Of a stretch of DNA of 64,000 nt, positions 31,566 through 38,358 are shown piece by piece; positions within the stretch are counted from its first letter, which is position 1; every line of letters starts with the position of its first letter. Origin of the DNA: a virus. The stretch lies in the IMG/VR virus record IMGVR_UViG_3300044825_001821, positions 108,440 to 172,439 of that record; one strand, written 5' to 3'. Below the pieces are notes generated by a model, which saw only the letters and a program-made list of their open reading frames with translations, had not been told where the DNA came from and searched no databases. Made by a program: the position numbers and the translations under genes.

Positions 31566-33271
31566 TATTATTTAAACGTCTGCGTTGGAAGAATCTACTT
31601 TCAACGGGCAACCATTTTACTGAAATATTACTGAATGGTAACCCTAACACACTCATCGTTGGAACAAATGGCTCAGGTAAGTCAACGATGCTTGACGCTT
31701 TGTGCTTTGGTTTGTTTGGTAAGCCTTTTCGTTCAATTAACAAACCAAACCTTGTAAATTCAATTAACAGTAGAGACACTGTAGTAGAGATTGAATTTTC
31801 TATTGGTAATAAAGAATATAAGATCGTTCGTGGTATCAAACCGAATGTGTTTGAGATATATCAAGACAAGGTTTTGCTGAATCAAGATGCGGCTGTAAGA
31901 GATTATCAAGACTACTTAGAGAAGTTTATTCTCAAACTAAACTATAAGTCTTTCACACAGATCGTGATTCTTGGTTCAGCATCCTTTACGCCGTTTATGC
32001 AATTGTCGGCTGCTGACCGTCGTGCAATCATCGAAGATTTGTTAGACATTCAAATCTTTTCTGTCATGAATGGATTGGTTAGAGAAAGACTATCTACCAA
32101 CAAAGAGTTGACAGCAGCAAAGAAAAGTGAGATAGCATTGCTTGAACAAAAGCATGAACTCAAAAAAGAATACCAAGACAAACTCAATGAAGATATTGAA
32201 GTAAAGGTAAAAGAACATGAGAAAGAGATACTTTTGCACAGAGAAACCATTCGCACCTTACATGATGAGATTAACAACTTGGAGCGAACGAAGAAATCGC
32301 TTGACGAAACCTGCATCAAAATTCCTGAAAATGAAAAGAAGATTGCTGCGCTTAAAAAAATTGAGTCACAAATTGAGAGCAAGATATCCAAAGTGGGAGA
32401 TGATAGAAGTTTCTATGAACACAATGCTGATTGCCCAACCTGTAGGCAAGCAATTACCTTGGAGTTTAAAGAGGGGCAACTTACAGAACTTGGCACAAAA
32501 GAACACGAACTTGCTAGTGCTTTAATAGAACTGCAAACAAAAATCACAACGCAAGAAAATGTTGTTGCTGAACTGCGTGGCAAAGAAAAAGATTTATCAA
32601 ACGTTCGCATTCAATTAGCAACTACACAAACCAGTGTGAAAGGTTTGAATGAAACAATCATCAAATTAGAAAAACAAATTAAAGAACTAAGAACACCCAA
32701 AGAAAACAGCACAGACACAAACGAATTAGAAACAATTAAAACACAGATAAAACAAGCACAAGAAGAATTGAAACAGTTATTGGATGATAAAGCGTACCTT
32801 GATGTAGCATCAACATTATTGAAAGATACAGGCATCAAAACTAATATCATTAAACAATATTTGCCTGTGATAAACAAACTGGTGAACAAGTATCTTACCA
32901 GCATGGATTTCTTTGTGAACTTCAATCTTGATGAAGCATTCAAAGAAACAATCAAGTCACGCCATCGTGATGACTTTAGTTATCACAACTTCTCAGAAGG
33001 TGAGAAACAGCGTATTGATATGGCATTGATGTTGACATGGAGAGCAGTTGCTAAATTGAAGAACTCTACCAACACTAATCTGCTTATACTGGATGAGATA
33101 TTTGATTCAAGCCTAGATACAAGTGGTACTGAAGATTTAATGAAGATACTTCATGAATTGAATGGTGTTAATTTATTTGTTATAAGTCACAAGGGTGATG
33201 TTTTACAAGATAAATTTATGAATACTATTCGTTTTGAAAAAGTGAAAAACTTTTCAAGGATAGTAAAATGA
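31562..33271 (+). CDS. gp46: Recombination ATPase subunit gp46 (Rad50/SbcC family)
   Basis: 569 residues. Walker A GTNGSGKST is at about 37-45. A long central coiled coil has the zinc-hook CPTC near 289-292. The signature FSEGEKQRIDMAL and Walker B LLILDEIFDSSLD are in the C-terminal part. It forms the ATP-driven clamp of the gp46/47 complex. Confidence 0.94.
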   Translation: MILFKRLRWKNLLSTGNHFTEILLNGNPNTLIVGTNGSGKSTMLDALCFGLFGKPFRSINKPNLVNSINSRDTVVEIEFSIGNKEYKIVRGIKPNVFEIYQDKVLLNQDAAVRDYQDYLEKFILKLNYKSFTQIVILGSASFTPFMQLSAADRRAIIEDLLDIQIFSVMNGLVRERLSTNKELTAAKKSEIALLEQKHELKKEYQDKLNEDIEVKVKEHEKEILLHRETIRTLHDEINNLERTKKSLDETCIKIPENEKKIAALKKIESQIESKISKVGDDRSFYEHNADCPTCRQAITLEFKEGQLTELGTKEHELASALIELQTKITTQENVVAELRGKEKDLSNVRIQLATTQTSVKGLNETIIKLEKQIKELRTPKENSTDTNELETIKTQIKQAQEELKQLLDDKAYLDVASTLLKDTGIKTNIIKQYLPVINKLVNKYLTSMDFFVNFNLDEAFKETIKSRHRDDFSYHNFSEGEKQRIDMALMLTWRAVAKLKNSTNTNLLILDEIFDSSLDTSGTEDLMKILHELNGVNLFVISHKGDVLQDKFMNTIRFEKVKNFSRIVK

Positions 33272-33852
33272 TTTTTAATTATTTGTTCTCCAGTTTTTAC
33301 ATACAAGAAAAAGTAAATTTAAATAGTGAGTTAATTTCAGAATATTGTTTGAGTCTAAGACAAAAAGACTCAGGTAGATTTATAACAAACTATGGTGGTT
33401 GGCAAAGCAATAAAATTACTCACCTGTCATCTGAGTTACAACCTCTATTGAGAGAAGTGCAAAACAGATTTACACCAATGAAAAAGTTGTTAGGTCTTAA
33501 AGAAAACGTTTCTCTTTCAATTGGAAGTCATTGGATAAACATAAATGGTAAAAACAATTTTAATATACCACATATACATCCATTTTCTTTAATGTCTGCT
33601 GTTTACTATGCGAAGGTGCCTAAAAATTCTGGTAAACTAATCTTTGAAAACCCTATTCAACATCATGATTATGTTATAGTACCAGATACAGTTGAAAACT
33701 ATAACTCATTTAATTCTGGTGTTTGGAACGTTGTACCAGAAGAAAATGATTTATTATTCTTTCCTTCTTGGCTGAAACATTGGGTCGAGCCAAGTGAAAC
33801 TGAAGAGGAAAGAATCTCGATAGCATTTAACATACAATATGATAACCAATAA
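33268..33852 (+). CDS. Fe(II)/2OG oxygenase-like protein, TIGR02466 type
   Basis: 194 residues, ATGA-coupled to gene 46. The metal-site HIHP is in FNIPHIHPFSLMSAVYYAKV; then GKLIFENPI, LLFFPSWLKHWVEP (distal His), and ERISIAFNIQ (Arg) follow. This is the compact oxygenase family often found in marine phages. Substrate unknown. It starts an oxygenase-rich accessory operon. Confidence 0.75.
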   Translation: MIFNYLFSSFYIQEKVNLNSELISEYCLSLRQKDSGRFITNYGGWQSNKITHLSSELQPLLREVQNRFTPMKKLLGLKENVSLSIGSHWININGKNNFNIPHIHPFSLMSAVYYAKVPKNSGKLIFENPIQHHDYVIVPDTVENYNSFNSGVWNVVPEENDLLFFPSWLKHWVEPSETEEERISIAFNIQYDNQ

Positions 33853-34402
33853 AGTATACGTCTTTGATTATATCATTGATGAAAATAAACGAAAAGATAT
33901 GTATGACACTTTGGTGAAACAACACCAAACAAACGTTTATTTAAAAGAATCAAATAACATGGGTGTGAACCACCCCTTCATGACAGAACTCAACGAAGTA
34001 TTCGTACAAAAATGTAGAGAGATATATGGACCGTTCGAGGAACAATCTTTAAAACAAAAAGATCATCCTTGGATTCATGATTCTAGATATGAGGCATGGG
34101 TTTATTTAAACAATAAAGATTGGTATAAAGGAGAAAATATACACAATCATATGCCTACATCTACATATGTTGGTGTATATTATTTGAATGTACCCAAGCA
34201 CTCAAATTTGATGAATGGTTGTTTGAAGTTCTACGATTACAAATGGCATCTGATTGATTACTTTTATCCGAAGCAGGGACAATTCATTATCTTTGAATCT
34301 GATCTGTTTCATTCAATTACAAAAAACAATTGCGAAGAATACAGAATTTCAATTAATCTTGAAATACTTGTAAAGAAAAAATTAAAATTTGTGGAGCAAT
34401 AA
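33839..34402 (+). CDS. Fe(II)/2OG oxygenase-like protein, related to preceding
   Basis: 187 residues, overlapping the previous gene by 14 nt. The layout parallels it: IHNHMPTSTYVGVYYLNVPK (metal His), then LKFYDYKWHL, GQFIIFESDLFHSITKN (distal His), and EYRISINLEI (Arg). Probably an old tandem duplicate that diverged. The HNHM site lacks the usual Asp at HxD, as in the sister gene's HIHP. Substrate unknown. Confidence 0.6.
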   Translation: MITNKVYVFDYIIDENKRKDMYDTLVKQHQTNVYLKESNNMGVNHPFMTELNEVFVQKCREIYGPFEEQSLKQKDHPWIHDSRYEAWVYLNNKDWYKGENIHNHMPTSTYVGVYYLNVPKHSNLMNGCLKFYDYKWHLIDYFYPKQGQFIIFESDLFHSITKNNCEEYRISINLEILVKKKLKFVEQ

Positions 34403-34403
34403 A

Positions 34404-35000
34404 ATGAGTGAATACATTACAATTGATACTGAAAAAGATATAACATGGAAAAATGAAAACATAACTCCTTTACCTGTTCATGGTGAAGATTATTTCATGT
34501 TAGATGTTCGTATCCCCGAATACAAGGGGGAGTTTCCGAATGCGGCAATGGTACATTTAGCCAAACGATTGCGTATGACTATGAAACTATATTCTGGTTT
34601 AGGTTTGTCGGCTAATCAATGTGGCGTTGCTGAACGTATGTTTGTAATAGGTTCTGGTGAATTTCAACTGACATGTTTAAATCCAAAATTGAAAGCACAA
34701 TCTGCAAAAAGATCGAAAGAAAAAGAGGGATGTTTATCACACCCAGGTTTATTTTTAATTGTTGATAGGCCAGAAGTTATTGAAGTTGAGTTCTTAACAG
34801 AGGATGGTGAGAAAAAAGAAATGACTTTAGAAGGAATCACTGCAAGATGTTTTCTTCATGAGTTAGATCATTTAGATGGGGTTAGATATACCAAACTTGT
34901 AAAACCCCTTGCACTTAGAATGGCAAGACAAAGAGCAAACAAACTTGTTAAAAAGATTGTAAGGAAAAATAAAAATGAAAGACTGGCAACACGGGTATGA
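34404..35000 (+). CDS. def: Peptide deformylase
   Basis: 198 residues. All three metal-site motifs are intact: GLGLSANQCG (motif 1, about 67-76), EGCLSHPG (motif 2), and HELDHLDG (motif 3). It removes the formyl group from new N-termini. Marine phage deformylases have been linked to maintaining host organelle or photosystem proteins, but this phage shows no photosynthesis genes. A TTG at 34389 is in frame but inside the upstream gene; ATG 34404 follows its stop. Confidence 0.93.
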   Translation: MSEYITIDTEKDITWKNENITPLPVHGEDYFMLDVRIPEYKGEFPNAAMVHLAKRLRMTMKLYSGLGLSANQCGVAERMFVIGSGEFQLTCLNPKLKAQSAKRSKEKEGCLSHPGLFLIVDRPEVIEVEFLTEDGEKKEMTLEGITARCFLHELDHLDGVRYTKLVKPLALRMARQRANKLVKKIVRKNKNERLATRV

Positions 35001-36069
35001 TTTAGACTATCTAAAAAGTCTAGCCGAAAAATACAAGCACTACAATTCTTATACATACTCACCTTTTGCACAAGTAAAAAAGAATAACATTGCAGAAGGT
35101 TTGCATAAGGGCACACTGATTCACTTGTATGAAGATACACTTCTTGATGTGGTACATGTCAAATCGAAGGGTAGCATTACCATGCATGGTGACACAGTAA
35201 TTGGTACAAAACAAAAAGGTGATGTTGTATTCTCAAAGATGACAGGCGATCCTAAAATTTTGAACATGGAAATTTCAAAATACAATCAGGATGCATGGAT
35301 GTATGTGTGGGCAGAAGATAAAGTGATGAATGATTTTGCTGAGTCTATTGGGTTTTGTAAAGTTGCACCAAAGATTACCTCATTTGGTGAGATGTATATG
35401 GTATACTATCGTGGTAAGAAAAGAGATTTTCCAAAAGTTGACCCGGCAGAATATCAAAGTATTTGCAAAATTCAAGATATTGATGTATCATTAATTGATA
35501 GTATTGCAGATAAGTTGAATGAACTACCTCAGTTTACAAATCATTACAGCAATTACAATAAAGGCAAATCATGGTCCGCACTATCCCTTCGTGGTTACAC
35601 TGCCGATCCTGCCTTTATTACAAAACCAATTGAGATGAATGATAAATGGAAAGAAGAAAATAAAGAGGTGCATTTTGAAATGCAAGACACACCTTTGTTT
35701 GAAATGTTTCCTGAAGTTCGTGAATTGATTAAACCGTTTGGTCAGAATATACACCGAGTGAGATTTATGAAATTGAAACCTGGCGGTGGTGAATTAGAAA
35801 GACACACCGATCAAGTTGACCCCGACTCTGGAGGTTCACTTGGTAAACTTGCAAGGTTACATTTTCCAATCAAGACAAATGATAAAGTTAAGTTTACTGT
35901 CTGGCATACAAATGGTGTGCCTAGAGAAGTAACAATGAAAAAAGGTGAGTGTTGGTTTCTAGATACACGTAAGCCACATAGAGCAATCAATGGTGGTGAT
36001 GAGGAACGAATTCATTTAGTAGTCGATATAATGACAGAGAAAGATTTACATGCTAGAATTGTTGAATGA
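34975..36069 (+). CDS. Two-domain protein: GNAT-like N-terminus plus aspartyl/asparaginyl beta-hydroxylase-like C-terminus
   Basis: 364 residues. Residues about 30-150 look like an acetyltransferase-type fold (MYVWAEDKVMNDFAESIGF then SFGEMYMVYYRG). From about 170 on it resembles the Asp/Asn beta-hydroxylase oxygenase family: GGGELERHTDQVDP (HxD near 275), LARLHFPI, GECWFLDTRKPHRAINGG (distal His) and ERIHLVVDI (Arg). It overlaps both the deformylase gene (26 nt) and the PLP-enzyme gene (20 nt), so the four genes form one operon. Confidence 0.6.
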   Translation: MKDWQHGYDLDYLKSLAEKYKHYNSYTYSPFAQVKKNNIAEGLHKGTLIHLYEDTLLDVVHVKSKGSITMHGDTVIGTKQKGDVVFSKMTGDPKILNMEISKYNQDAWMYVWAEDKVMNDFAESIGFCKVAPKITSFGEMYMVYYRGKKRDFPKVDPAEYQSICKIQDIDVSLIDSIADKLNELPQFTNHYSNYNKGKSWSALSLRGYTADPAFITKPIEMNDKWKEENKEVHFEMQDTPLFEMFPEVRELIKPFGQNIHRVRFMKLKPGGGELERHTDQVDPDSGGSLGKLARLHFPIKTNDKVKFTVWHTNGVPREVTMKKGECWFLDTRKPHRAINGGDEERIHLVVDIMTEKDLHARIVE

Positions 36070-36787
36070 TTGGAGTGATCCTAATCCAAAACCTATTATT
36101 GAGATGCACAATAATTTTTATGTTGTGCGTGATGACCTATTAGAATATGGAAGCAAAAGTAGATTCATTGATTACCTGATTAAAAGTGAGGGTAATGAGT
36201 GGGTGTTTGGTGGCGCAAACAAAGTAGGTTGGGGACCTATATCACTAACGCATGTTTGTAATTTATACAATAAAAAAGCAACATTCTTTATGGCCAAAAG
36301 AAAAGAACCTACTTGGCACCAACAAAAAGTGTTAGACATGGGTGGCACAATTCATTGGGTCGATAATGGAATGTTGAATGTGACAAAAGCAAAAGCACGT
36401 AAGTATTATGAAGAAGATACAGTCAATCGTAGAGTGTTGCCTTTAGGTCTAGAACACCCTTCAGTGTTAGCATCGATAGTTAAAGTTGCAAAGAGTTTGG
36501 AAGTAACACCAACAGAAATATGGACAGTAGCATCAAGTGGAACATTAAGTAGAGGATTACAGTTAGCGTTTCCAGAACTGCCAGTGTATGCAGTTGAGAT
36601 TGGACACAAAATGAGTGAGTATGAAAGAGGTCGTGCAATAACTATGCGCTCACCTTATAAGTACGATCAACCTATCAAAGAAGAAGAAGCACCACCATAT
36701 CCATCAGAAAAATATTATGATGCAAAGATATGGCCATTTGTTATTGAACACGCCAAACCCGGCGCACTGATTTGGAATGTTGCATGA
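36050..36787 (+). CDS. PLP-dependent enzyme, ACC deaminase/D-cysteine desulfhydrase-like (fold II)
   Basis: 245 residues, shorter than the roughly 330 usual for the family. The probable PLP lysine is K36 in RDDLLEYGSKSRFIDYLI. A glycine-rich phosphate-binding loop may lie in VASSGTLSRGLQLAFPELPV. GPISLTHVCNLYNKKATFFM matches the Rossmann-like part. It is coupled on both sides, with the DNA methyltransferase-like gene starting in its stop codon. Acting on a free amino acid or a modified nucleotide side chain are both open. Confidence 0.65.
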   Translation: MLELLNDWSDPNPKPIIEMHNNFYVVRDDLLEYGSKSRFIDYLIKSEGNEWVFGGANKVGWGPISLTHVCNLYNKKATFFMAKRKEPTWHQQKVLDMGGTIHWVDNGMLNVTKAKARKYYEEDTVNRRVLPLGLEHPSVLASIVKVAKSLEVTPTEIWTVASSGTLSRGLQLAFPELPVYAVEIGHKMSEYERGRAITMRSPYKYDQPIKEEEAPPYPSEKYYDAKIWPFVIEHAKPGALIWNVA

Positions 36788-38358
36788 AATATTTTTATGA
36801 AAAGAATACAGAGTTACTTGAATCAAATGTAAACAAAACATTTGATGAAGTTCTTATTATGACGAAGGATGAATTTCGTCAATGGGCTATTGACTTACGC
36901 AAAAAAGTTGTTTATCTGTGGGATGAAAAAGGTCAACCACCACGTGTGGGATATGATGAACAAGAAATCATCGATCAGTTCAATGAGATGACTTCATTTC
37001 CTGTTCATAAATTTTTGGTTGAAGATGAATACACAAATGAAAAAAATGTAATTCGTAATACAAGTGTGATTGGGAATGCAGTTAATCAATGGTTTCCTAC
37101 CATGATGAAAACACGAATCAATTACACCAAAGATGTTGACAAAGGCAAATCAATATACGATTACTTTGCACGTGATGACTTACTTGATACGTTTGTAACG
37201 TATGCTTCAAGGCATTTCAAACGAGATTCTTTTTATCATTACTCTTCACCAATTCAAGTTGATAAACTAATTCAGATTGGTTCATTGCAGGTTGTACCAC
37301 AAACAACAAAAGAGTTTGTTGAGTGGTTCGAAACTAAAGCAAGAGGCTATGGCACACATGACTATTGGTTAGAACCTGCTGATGAAGATAAAGAATACAC
37401 AGGATACAATGAAGAGTTGAAGAATCAAAAGTATTTGTTTGTTTCACGTGATGAAATTATTGATTTGAACATACCTGTTCATTGTATAACAAATATTGAT
37501 GCCAAGGAAGGTGTCAACACATATAGAATTAGACTATATGAAAAAGAACAAAAACTTTTTCCTGTAGGTCTTAAAGCTTTCCGTGTGTCGTTCTGTCAGT
37601 ATGCGGTTAATTTTCCTCCATTGACAGCCAAATACTTGTATGAACGATACACGGAGCCTTTTAAAAATCAAGAGCAAATAATCATATACGATCCATCTTC
37701 TGGTTGGGGTGGTCGTTTACTTGGCGCATTGTCGGTTGACGATAATCGAAACATACATTACGTGGGAACTGATCCTAACACAGATCATAACACCCACAGC
37801 GGTAGAACAAAGTACCATGAGTTCGCTGACTTTTTTAATACGAACACGTACAGAGCGACTGGTTTGTTTCCTAAAACACACACATATGAAATCTTTCAAC
37901 ACGGTTCTGAAGAAATACACAATGATCCTGCGTTTCAAAAGTATAAAGGTAAGTTAGATTTGATCTTTACTTCACCACCATACTTTGCTAAAGAAGCCTA
38001 CTCTGAAGATGACGCACAATCGTATAAAAAATTTAGTCAATATGATTTGTGGCGTGATGGATTTCTTCGTAAGACATTAGAAACTTGTGCCGAGTATCTA
38101 AAGAGTGATCGATATCTGTTATGGAATATTGCTGATGCAGTGTTTGATAGTGAAATGCTTCCACTAGAACAAGATTCAATTGATATACTTACCGAGTATG
38201 GATTGATCTATAAAGGCAAACTGAAAATGTCACTGGCACAAATGCCAGGAGGCAATCGTGTTGACTCAGAGACAGGACTACCTAAAGCAAAAAACTTTTG
38301 CAAAGTTAATAACATGTGGCTCAAATACGAACCTATTTTTGTCTTTTATAAACCTTGA
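36784..38358 (+). CDS. DNA methyltransferase-like protein with large N-terminal extension
   Basis: 524 residues. The SAM site IYDPSSGWGGRLLGAL is near 302, and catalytic TSPPYFAKEAY near 396; SPPY is typical of N4-cytosine/N6-adenine amino methyltransferases. YLLWNIADAVFD follows. About 290 residues precede the methylase core and match nothing I recognise. ATG 36784 overlaps the PLP gene stop. It may modify phage DNA, possibly together with the PLP and oxygenase genes of the same operon. Confidence 0.7.
   Translation: MKYFYEKNTELLESNVNKTFDEVLIMTKDEFRQWAIDLRKKVVYLWDEKGQPPRVGYDEQEIIDQFNEMTSFPVHKFLVEDEYTNEKNVIRNTSVIGNAVNQWFPTMMKTRINYTKDVDKGKSIYDYFARDDLLDTFVTYASRHFKRDSFYHYSSPIQVDKLIQIGSLQVVPQTTKEFVEWFETKARGYGTHDYWLEPADEDKEYTGYNEELKNQKYLFVSRDEIIDLNIPVHCITNIDAKEGVNTYRIRLYEKEQKLFPVGLKAFRVSFCQYAVNFPPLTAKYLYERYTEPFKNQEQIIIYDPSSGWGGRLLGALSVDDNRNIHYVGTDPNTDHNTHSGRTKYHEFADFFNTNTYRATGLFPKTHTYEIFQHGSEEIHNDPAFQKYKGKLDLIFTSPPYFAKEAYSEDDAQSYKKFSQYDLWRDGFLRKTLETCAEYLKSDRYLLWNIADAVFDSEMLPLEQDSIDILTEYGLIYKGKLKMSLAQMPGGNRVDSETGLPKAKNFCKVNNMWLKYEPIFVFYKP

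What the first reader, a model, noticed from the sequence alone, without database searches (positions are those of the whole stretch)
34404..38358. Overlapping operon: deformylase, GNAT/hydroxylase-like, PLP enzyme, SPPY methyltransferase
The four genes overlap each other, so they were likely kept together. A fold-II PLP enzyme coupled by ATGA to an amino-methyltransferase-like protein with a 290-residue unknown N-terminus, plus an Asp/Asn hydroxylase-like domain joined to an acetyltransferase-like one, looks like a set for building an amino-acid-derived base modification. PLP enzymes and acetyltransferase-like proteins take part in known phage thymidine hypermodification. The exact combination is not one I know.
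Basis: inference. Interest (0 to 1): 0.75.

Follow-up and report, generated by a model that had tools for sequence, protein, structure and literature searches.

The report
Phage methyltransferase–decarboxylase pair modifying DNA
A phage carries, in one tightly packed operon, a DNA methyltransferase-like enzyme and a vitamin-B6 enzyme that recur together in many phages, and comparison with relatives suggests that they decorate the phage's own DNA with an amine derived from the cell's methyl donor SAM, a chemistry for which we found no description.

Summary
The operon is real: deformylase, GNAT-like/hydroxylase fusion, fold-II PLP enzyme and SPPY methyltransferase overlap, the last two by ATGA. 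The PLP enzyme is a diverged relative of the one in the thymidine-hypermodification cassette of M6-like phages, closer to it than to CysK, DcyD or IlvA. Unlike the M6 type it usually sits by a methyltransferase: within 3.5 kb in 53 of 63 dereplicated loci, against 0 of 15 M6-type loci. In Erythrobacter phages and Pam4 a PLP domain is inserted inside the methyltransferase. Related methyltransferases often carry a SAM decarboxylase gene instead (46 of 80; PLP 3; both 0), with a matching motif I change. I infer that the methyltransferase-like enzyme puts a SAM-derived aminocarboxypropyl group on an exocyclic base amine and the PLP enzyme decarboxylates it, giving an aminopropyl base. Hypermodification is likely (about 0.8); the exact chemistry is unproven (about 0.45). 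Against: only 10 of 25 close relatives of this methyltransferase have PLP nearby. The deformylase is probably a bystander.

The parts
36050..36787 (+). Fold-type-II PLP enzyme, 245 aa; predicted Schiff-base lysine K36 (codon 36155-36157) in RDDLLEYGSKSR; C-terminal family signature PPYPSxxxYDAKIW...GALIWNV
   Evidence: phrog_7093 1.5e-28; family profile matches cysteine synthases of the PDB; M6-type PLP profile 37.5 bits against at most 14.4 for CysK, DcyD, IlvA; conserved columns
36784..38358 (+). SPPY-type exocyclic-amine methyltransferase, 524 aa: unknown N-terminal ~270 residues, then class I methyltransferase core (motif I DPSSGWGGR, motif IV TSPPYF)
   Evidence: PF01555 2.8e-6; motifs I and IV conserved in 17 aligned sequences, window included; model mean pLDDT 83.9, best chain tRNA m2G10 methyltransferase Trm11 Z 15.2, rmsd 3.2, 180 residues; phrog_12517 7.8e-9 and phrog_498 1.1e-5
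34975..36069 (+). Fusion of a diverged GNAT-like N-terminus (about residues 1-150) and a 2OG-Fe(II) hydroxylase of the aspartyl/asparaginyl-hydroxylase and proline-hydroxylase group (about residues 161-364)
   Evidence: PF05118 1.1e-13; H277, D279, H335, R345 invariant in 20 aligned sequences, window included; L-proline cis-4-hydroxylase 4p7w E 2.1e-7, Z 14.5, rmsd 2.8, 164 residues; N-terminus versus stand-alone GNATs hhalign 86.8%
34404..35000 (+). Peptide deformylase; overlaps the hydroxylase gene but probably not part of the modification set
   Evidence: PF01327 1.9e-32; a deformylase-like gene, by eye, precedes the methyltransferase also in the 9 PLP-less loci printed (of 15 with full flanks)
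33268..34402 (+). Two overlapping 2OG-Fe(II) oxygenase genes (PF13759; phrog_81) upstream; relation to the pair unknown

Best explanation
The PLP enzyme and the SPPY methyltransferase are successive enzymes of a phage DNA base hypermodification. (1) The methyltransferase-like enzyme binds SAM and lets an exocyclic base amine (cytosine N4 or adenine N6) attack it, as its motif class implies [inferred from motifs]. (2) Instead of, or besides, methyl it transfers the 3-amino-3-carboxypropyl (acp) arm of SAM, leaving an amino acid tethered to the base and releasing methylthioadenosine [inferred]. (3) The PLP enzyme forms an aldimine with that tethered amino acid and decarboxylates it, leaving a 3-aminopropyl base, the kind of step its M6-type relative is held to perform on a thymine-tethered amino acid (recalled) [homology shown; reaction inferred]. 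In related phages SpeD would make decarboxylated SAM first and the methyltransferase-like enzyme would transfer the aminopropyl arm directly: two routes to one product [exchange of partner genes and motif covariation shown; reaction inferred]. (4) In this lineage the GNAT-like/hydroxylase protein would hydroxylate the side chain; its acetyltransferase half seems degenerate [inferred]. Likelihoods: DNA hypermodification by the pair about 0.8; PLP as a decarboxylase of a SAM-derived group about 0.5; whole scheme about 0.45.
For: Homology to the M6-type PLP enzyme, well above three cellular fold-II enzymes; shared signature PFPx..YDxKxW in 82 of 96 relatives and 17 of 21 M6-type proteins, in none of CysK, DcyD, IlvA. 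Methyltransferase within 3.5 kb in 53 of 63 dereplicated loci, within 150 bp in 40; of 15 M6-type loci (not dereplicated) none has it and 13 have ADDT, while ADDT is near none of our 63. PLP domain inserted in ParB-methyltransferase polypeptides of Erythrobacter phages ZS04 and R6L and, with a very diverged PLP, Pam4. SpeD next to 46 of 80 relatives of such methyltransferases, PLP next to 3, both next to 0. Over 91 rows, not dereplicated, motif I is AGD in 49 of 49 SpeD-linked enzymes, AGG in 7 of 7 PLP-linked ones, and in 35 with neither partner AGG 32, AGD 1, other 2; in the PLP scans 57 of 65 PLP-adjacent enzymes are AGG, 8 not covered, none AGD. SpeD of Croceibacter phage P2559s restored spermidine in an E. 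coli speD mutant (PMC9992855, passages read), and its gene overlaps such a methyltransferase gene.
Against: No nucleoside or enzyme data. The SpeD argument comes from the ParB-type methyltransferases; the window's enzyme shows no ParB match, has another N-terminus and reads DPSSGWGGR at motif I, though it matches the same PHROGs weakly. PLP-linked and most partnerless enzymes share AGG at motif I, so plain SAM methylation fits them equally. Only 10 of 25 close relatives of the window's methyltransferase with full flanks have PLP nearby, and none of the 80 has SpeD; 26 of the 80 have a stand-alone GNAT instead, none together with PLP. Ten of 63 PLP loci lack the methyltransferase; seven of these carry a protein of unknown family. 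The PLP family is rare in cultured phages (3 of 50,697 records match the window protein). Fold-type-II PLP enzymes are mostly eliminases and synthases, not decarboxylases (recalled); the decarboxylase role of the M6 enzyme is recalled (Lee et al. 2021 was not held).
Confidence: 0.45

Rival explanations
1. The PLP enzyme is a beta-replacement enzyme like cysteine synthase or O-phosphoserine sulfhydrylase: it turns serine (or an activated serine) into aminoacrylate and couples it to the base amine held by the methyltransferase, giving a diaminopropionate-type base; ParB/Srx domains of the relatives could supply O-phosphoserine, as SerK and SbnI do (recalled).
For: Best profile matches among solved structures are cysteine synthases, with O-phosphoserine sulfhydrylase lower in the list; fold-II enzymes usually do such chemistry (recalled); ParB domains accompany the siphophage methyltransferases.
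Against: Does not explain why SpeD, a SAM decarboxylase, stands in place of PLP beside related methyltransferases; no ParB domain was matched in the window's methyltransferase; the M6-type relative works in a cassette that has its own amino acid:DNA transferase.
Confidence: 0.15
2. The methyltransferase makes ordinary m4C or m6A, and the PLP enzyme is an auxiliary metabolic gene (for example a serine, threonine or D-cysteine lyase) that is only co-transcribed with it.
For: PLP-linked and most partnerless methyltransferases share motif I; PHROGs label the PLP family 'threonine dehydratase'; the methyltransferase often occurs without PLP.
Against: A PLP domain inserted inside the methyltransferase in Erythrobacter phages and Pam4; PLP within 150 bp of the methyltransferase in 40 of 63 dereplicated loci; closest characterised context is a DNA-hypermodification cassette.
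Confidence: 0.2
3. A decorated thymine as in M6: the PLP enzyme decarboxylates an amino acid on a 5-hydroxymethyluracil-derived base, and the methyltransferase is a separate modification or replaces the amino acid:DNA transferase.
For: PLP homology to the M6-type enzyme; a relative of the hydroxylase stands beside an ADDT in LilMcDreamy; thymidylate-synthase-family genes occur in two records of the methyltransferase-less PLP clade.
Against: No ADDT and no thymidylate synthase family in the window's 172-kb record (it may be a fragment); ADDT near 0 of 63 of our PLP loci; SPPY motifs belong to exocyclic-amine enzymes (recalled), which thymine does not offer.
Confidence: 0.1

Closest known systems
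M6/SN1-type thymidine hypermodification cassette (PLP enzyme SN1_023, phrog_7093)
   Same: Homologous fold-II PLP enzyme with the same C-terminal signature; phage DNA context
   Different: M6-type has 5-hmdU DNA kinase, ADDT, radical SAM and pyrimidine hydroxymethylase around it and no SPPY methyltransferase within 3.5 kb in 15 of 15 loci; here the partner is an SPPY methyltransferase, and no ADDT or thymidylate synthase family was found in the record
ParB-fused orphan DNA methyltransferases (phrog_498), e.g. Listeria phage B054 gp77, Enterococcus phage phiFL3A gp36
   Same: Related methyltransferase core (phrog_498 and phrog_12517)
   Different: These two have no PLP or SpeD gene beside them; the window's enzyme has an unknown N-terminus where they have ParB
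SpeD-linked ParB-methyltransferases, e.g. Croceibacter phage P2559S and Pseudomonas phage ZRG1
   Same: Related methyltransferase with an overlapping gene for a decarboxylase
   Different: Pyruvoyl SAM decarboxylase instead of PLP; motif I AGD instead of AGG
CmoX/CmoY carboxymethylcytosine system of Synechococcus phage S-B43 (PMC12783734; abstract, outline and introduction read)
   Same: A DNA methyltransferase homologue that transfers a group other than methyl from a SAM derivative and builds a handle for further modification
   Different: C5-cytosine enzyme with carboxy-SAM and an amide ligase; no PLP enzyme in the abstract or introduction
L-proline cis-4-hydroxylase and nucleoside-antibiotic beta-hydroxylase (4p7w, 7v4m)
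   Same: Same oxygenase fold as the hydroxylase domain, which has intact iron/2OG residues
   Different: Here fused to a GNAT-like domain and carried by phages; substrate unknown

Membership tests
phrog_7093 / M6-type PLP enzyme | Profile match clearly above other fold-II PLP enzymes | tested here: met
   Window 1.5e-28 to phrog_7093; SN1 enzyme 2e-160 to the same family; M6 profile 37.5 bits for the window against 14.4 IlvA, 10.2 CysK, 6.6 DcyD
phrog_7093 / M6-type PLP enzyme | Membership of the M6 clade proper (ADDT-linked) | tested here: not met
   In a 60-row tree the 11 M6-type proteins form one group (94/96) and the window lies in another, mostly methyltransferase-linked group of 44 (96/96); controls sit on long branches
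PF00291 fold-type-II PLP enzymes | Curated cut-off reached | tested here: inconclusive
   Window 15.6 bits against cut-off 35, but its relative in ZS04 40.1 bits; family profile matches cysteine synthases in the PDB
PF00291 fold-type-II PLP enzymes | Schiff-base lysine in the N-terminal SxK/GxK motif | tested here: met
   K36 invariant in two alignments of 8; the motif expression fits 88 of 96 relatives, and the 8 misses, all printed, still read G[ST]K
Thymidine hypermodification (5hmdU pathway) | ADDT and a thymidylate-synthase-family hydroxymethylase in the same genome | tested here: not met
   PF18724 and PF00303: no match in the 172-kb record G000; SN1 positive in both. The record may be incomplete
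N6/N4 amino DNA methyltransferases (PF01555) | Motif I and motif IV (SPPY) intact and cut-off reached | tested here: met
   27.9 bits, cut-off 26.7; motifs conserved in 17 aligned sequences
N6/N4 amino DNA methyltransferases (PF01555) | Transfers methyl to DNA | not testable with these tools
   Needs enzyme assay or nucleoside mass spectrometry
PF05118 aspartyl/asparaginyl hydroxylase | Curated match, Fe(II)-binding HxD...H and 2OG-binding R | tested here: met
   51.8 bits, cut-off 22.6; H277, D279, H335, R345 invariant in 20 aligned sequences
GNAT acetyltransferase | Acetyl-CoA loop (Q/RxxGxG/A) and curated match | tested here: inconclusive
   No Pfam match for the fused N-terminus; I see no such loop there; hhalign to stand-alone GNATs 86.8%; a stand-alone one passes PF00583 with 21.7 bits, cut-off 20.7

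The most novel reading that the evidence does not exclude
Phages convert exocyclic base amines in DNA to N-(3-aminopropyl) amines from SAM, by two alternative routes: acp transfer followed by a PLP decarboxylase acting on DNA (window type and ParB-methyltransferase-PLP fusions), or transfer of the aminopropyl arm from decarboxylated SAM made by a linked SpeD. This would be a class of DNA modification built like polyamines, with exchangeable tailoring enzymes (PLP, SpeD, GNAT, hydroxylase).
Probability: 0.4. Interest if true: 0.92.

Novelty: new variant of a known kind. Interest (0 to 1): 0.76.

Why it matters
It points to a DNA-modification chemistry for which no description was found in the searches made here (listings), in phages already in culture, so one mass-spectrometry run could decide it. 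If true it could explain some phage SAM decarboxylases that are now read as polyamine metabolism, would show PLP and SpeD as interchangeable solutions to one step, and would add a positively charged base that may (inference) block restriction enzymes or CRISPR nucleases.

Tried and rejected
Thymidine pathway proper: no ADDT and no thymidylate synthase family in the record. Defence system: PADLOC gives generic type II methyltransferase models for the window's methyltransferase, nothing for its hydroxylase or PLP enzyme; the relatives' methyltransferases matched mostly such models, plus mad2 and orphan-methyltransferase ones. Plasmids: no match for the Mae-JY30 PLP. Cultured phages with the window's whole methyltransferase: tblastn gave 24 records, none covering 80% of it. 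Methyltransferase-less PLP clade: I suspected its ~300-400 aa partner to be a distant ADDT or HMUDK domain; hhalign gave probabilities below 3%, and there was no Pfam, NCBIfam, PHROG or phage tblastn match (L122 copy). Of 13 records behind methyltransferase-less loci, the nine virus records matched neither methyltransferase query; of the four cellular genomes, L226's has one on another contig (66% identity) and L232's a weak partial match. Structural search of the methyltransferase model: class I methyltransferases run from Z 15.2 down to 12.8 over the 50 rows shown, with branched-chain polyamine synthase BpsA among them at 13.3; not discriminating, and the N-terminal ~270 residues were hardly tested; a profile search of the PDB by sequence found nothing significant. 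The GNAT part could not be tested by fold because the oxygenase domain fills the list. Searching SpeD relatives from ZRG1 alone gave one locus. A tree placed the Pam4 and AlanGrant PLP domains with DcyD on long branches; I draw nothing from that. Papers: I saw only listings, and none described a PLP-methyltransferase or SpeD-methyltransferase DNA modification; the library holds only openly licensed PMC papers. A term search of PMC6449724 for the M6 pathway steps found nothing. The R6L paper (passages) calls ORF 1 a DNA modification methylase with a CcrM-like domain and has no word beginning with pyridoxal.

Full report
What is there. Window 34404-38358 holds four consecutive + strand genes that overlap: a peptide deformylase, a GNAT-like/hydroxylase fusion, a fold-type-II PLP enzyme and an SPPY methyltransferase; the last two share ATGA at 36784-36787. 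The window is the last 64 kb of a 172,439-bp IMG/VR virus record, in which PF01555 finds only this one methyltransferase. Two 2OG-Fe(II) oxygenase genes lie just upstream.

The PLP enzyme. Pfam barely sees it (PF00291, E 0.01), but phrog_7093 does at 1.5e-28. That PHROG is the family of the PLP enzyme of phage SN1, an M6-like phage whose thymidine-hypermodification cassette is described in PMC9476957 (whole text read): the SN1 enzyme matches it at 2e-160 and is itself PF00291 above cut-off, and phage M6 carries a 96.8% identical copy. With profiles built from 96 relatives of the window enzyme and 21 M6-type proteins, the two sets find each other (window 37.5 bits with the M6 profile; SN1 53.0 bits with ours), while E. 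coli CysK, IlvA and DcyD stay at or below 16.1 bits with either. Both sets share a C-terminal signature, PFPx..YDxKxW, followed by WN; the first part is in 82 of 96 and 17 of 21 proteins and in none of the three controls. The lysine motif is intact. In a tree the M6-type enzymes form one group and ours another; the controls and two other PLP domains sit on long branches.

Its partner. The window enzyme led to 43 close relatives in IMG/VR, a three-sequence alignment to 484 confirmed relatives of which 80 were kept, and an eight-sequence alignment to 549 of which 80 were kept; another three-sequence alignment gave 34 loci among 84,980 species genomes, mostly alphaproteobacterial by title. Of 237 loci then held, 229 had a PLP domain of at least 150 residues in one frame; these fall in 103 clusters at 90% identity, 63 of them with at least 3.5 kb on both sides. 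Among the 63, a methyltransferase of this kind lies within 150 bp in 40, within 3.5 kb in 13 more, and not in 10. The M6-type loci are the control: of 15 with such flanks 0 have it and 13 have ADDT; of our 63, none has ADDT. In Microcystis phage Mae-JY30 a ParB/sulfiredoxin gene, the methyltransferase (PF01555) and the PLP gene follow one another; the record labels the last one DNA modification methylase. In Erythrobacter phage ZS04 the PLP domain is inserted between motif I and the SCPPY motif of one ParB-methyltransferase protein, and in R6L the PLP match lies between the two methyltransferase pieces of the gene annotated DNA modification methylase. Pseudanabaena phage Pam4 has a very diverged PLP domain at the same place, and mycobacteriophage AlanGrant a PALP gene overlapping its methyltransferase gene.

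What takes its place. Eighty relatives of the ParB-type methyltransferases, ranked by similarity to that of Pseudomonas phage ZRG1, were fetched. Next to the methyltransferase, 46 have a SAM decarboxylase (SpeD), 3 have PLP, 31 neither and none both; dereplicated to 58 loci these are 36, 1, 21 and 0. Motif I, near the methionine end of SAM (recalled), changes with the partner: over 91 rows it is AGD in 49 of 49 SpeD-linked enzymes and AGG in 7 of 7 PLP-linked ones; of 35 with neither partner, 32 are AGG, 1 AGD and 2 other. In the PLP scans 57 of 65 PLP-adjacent enzymes are AGG, 8 are not covered and none is AGD. The SpeD of Croceibacter phage P2559s was shown to be a true SAM decarboxylase (PMC9992855, passages); a term search of that paper finds no occurrence of methyltransferase. 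So a SAM decarboxylase and an M6-like PLP enzyme stand in for one another beside related methyltransferases. The simplest common meaning, in my reading, is that the final group is an aminopropyl arm: made before transfer by SpeD, or after transfer by the PLP enzyme.

The other genes. The hydroxylase domain has its iron and 2-oxoglutarate residues and is nearest to L-proline cis-4-hydroxylase by sequence and, by fold, to a nucleoside-antibiotic hydroxylase, proline 3-hydroxylase and that enzyme, with tied Z values. A relative in mycobacteriophage LilMcDreamy (28% over residues 108-348) overlaps a gene that passes the ADDT model. Among 80 close relatives of the window's methyltransferase, 26 have a stand-alone GNAT gene and in all 26 it directly precedes the methyltransferase; 17 have PLP; none has both. 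The fused N-terminus is a diverged relative of that GNAT (hhalign 86.8%) in which I see no acetyl-CoA loop. A deformylase-like gene, by eye, also precedes the methyltransferase in the 9 PLP-less loci printed, so I leave the deformylase out of the mechanism.

Against this reading. Only 10 of the 25 methyltransferase relatives with 4 kb on both sides have PLP, and none of the 80 has SpeD, so for the window-type enzyme PLP is an optional step and the SpeD evidence comes from a related but differently built methyltransferase. PLP-linked and most partnerless methyltransferases share AGG at motif I, so plain methylation remains open. Ten of 63 PLP loci lack the methyltransferase; seven of them carry a protein of unknown family instead. 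That the M6 enzyme decarboxylates a base-tethered amino acid is recalled from Lee et al. 2021, which the library does not hold. No chemistry has been measured.

Verdict. The proposed acp-then-decarboxylate chemistry is my inference.

Noticed in passing
L112:4728-5936, L122:5007-5921 and relatives in L110, L111, L115-L117, L121, L231, L232, L234: A ~300-400 aa protein family without Pfam, PHROG, NCBIfam or (L122 copy) phage tblastn match lies by the PLP gene in the clade that lacks the methyltransferase; phrog_13881 relatives occur in most of the same loci. A third partner for the same PLP enzyme.
   Followed up: partly
L288:2344-4201, L290:2356-3997, and 46 of the 80 loci: SpeD genes next to ParB-methyltransferases, with motif I AGD...FG where PLP-linked ones read AGG...RG; these may be aminopropyltransferases acting on DNA.
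   Followed up: partly
L377:4570-5001 and 25 further loci: A stand-alone GNAT gene directly before the SPPY methyltransferase in 26 of 26 loci that have it, none of them with PLP.
   Followed up: partly
L291:855-3759: Mycobacteriophage LilMcDreamy: a gene annotated queuine tRNA-ribosyltransferase, an ADDT and the GNAT-like/hydroxylase relative in a row.
   Followed up: no
L024:8758-9469, L034:7197-8409 and similar loci: Between PLP and methyltransferase several relatives carry an ~85-aa protein with a CGNPNCxMC-like motif, a protein that looks to me like a dCMP deaminase, and in some an extra oxygenase-like gene (names by eye).
   Followed up: no
window 33268-34402: Two overlapping 2OG-Fe(II) oxygenase genes directly upstream.
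   Followed up: no
L231, L232, L234 (genome contigs): The methyltransferase-less PLP clade also appears in contigs filed under cellular genomes (Bacteroidetes, Rhodobacteraceae); origin not examined.
   Followed up: no
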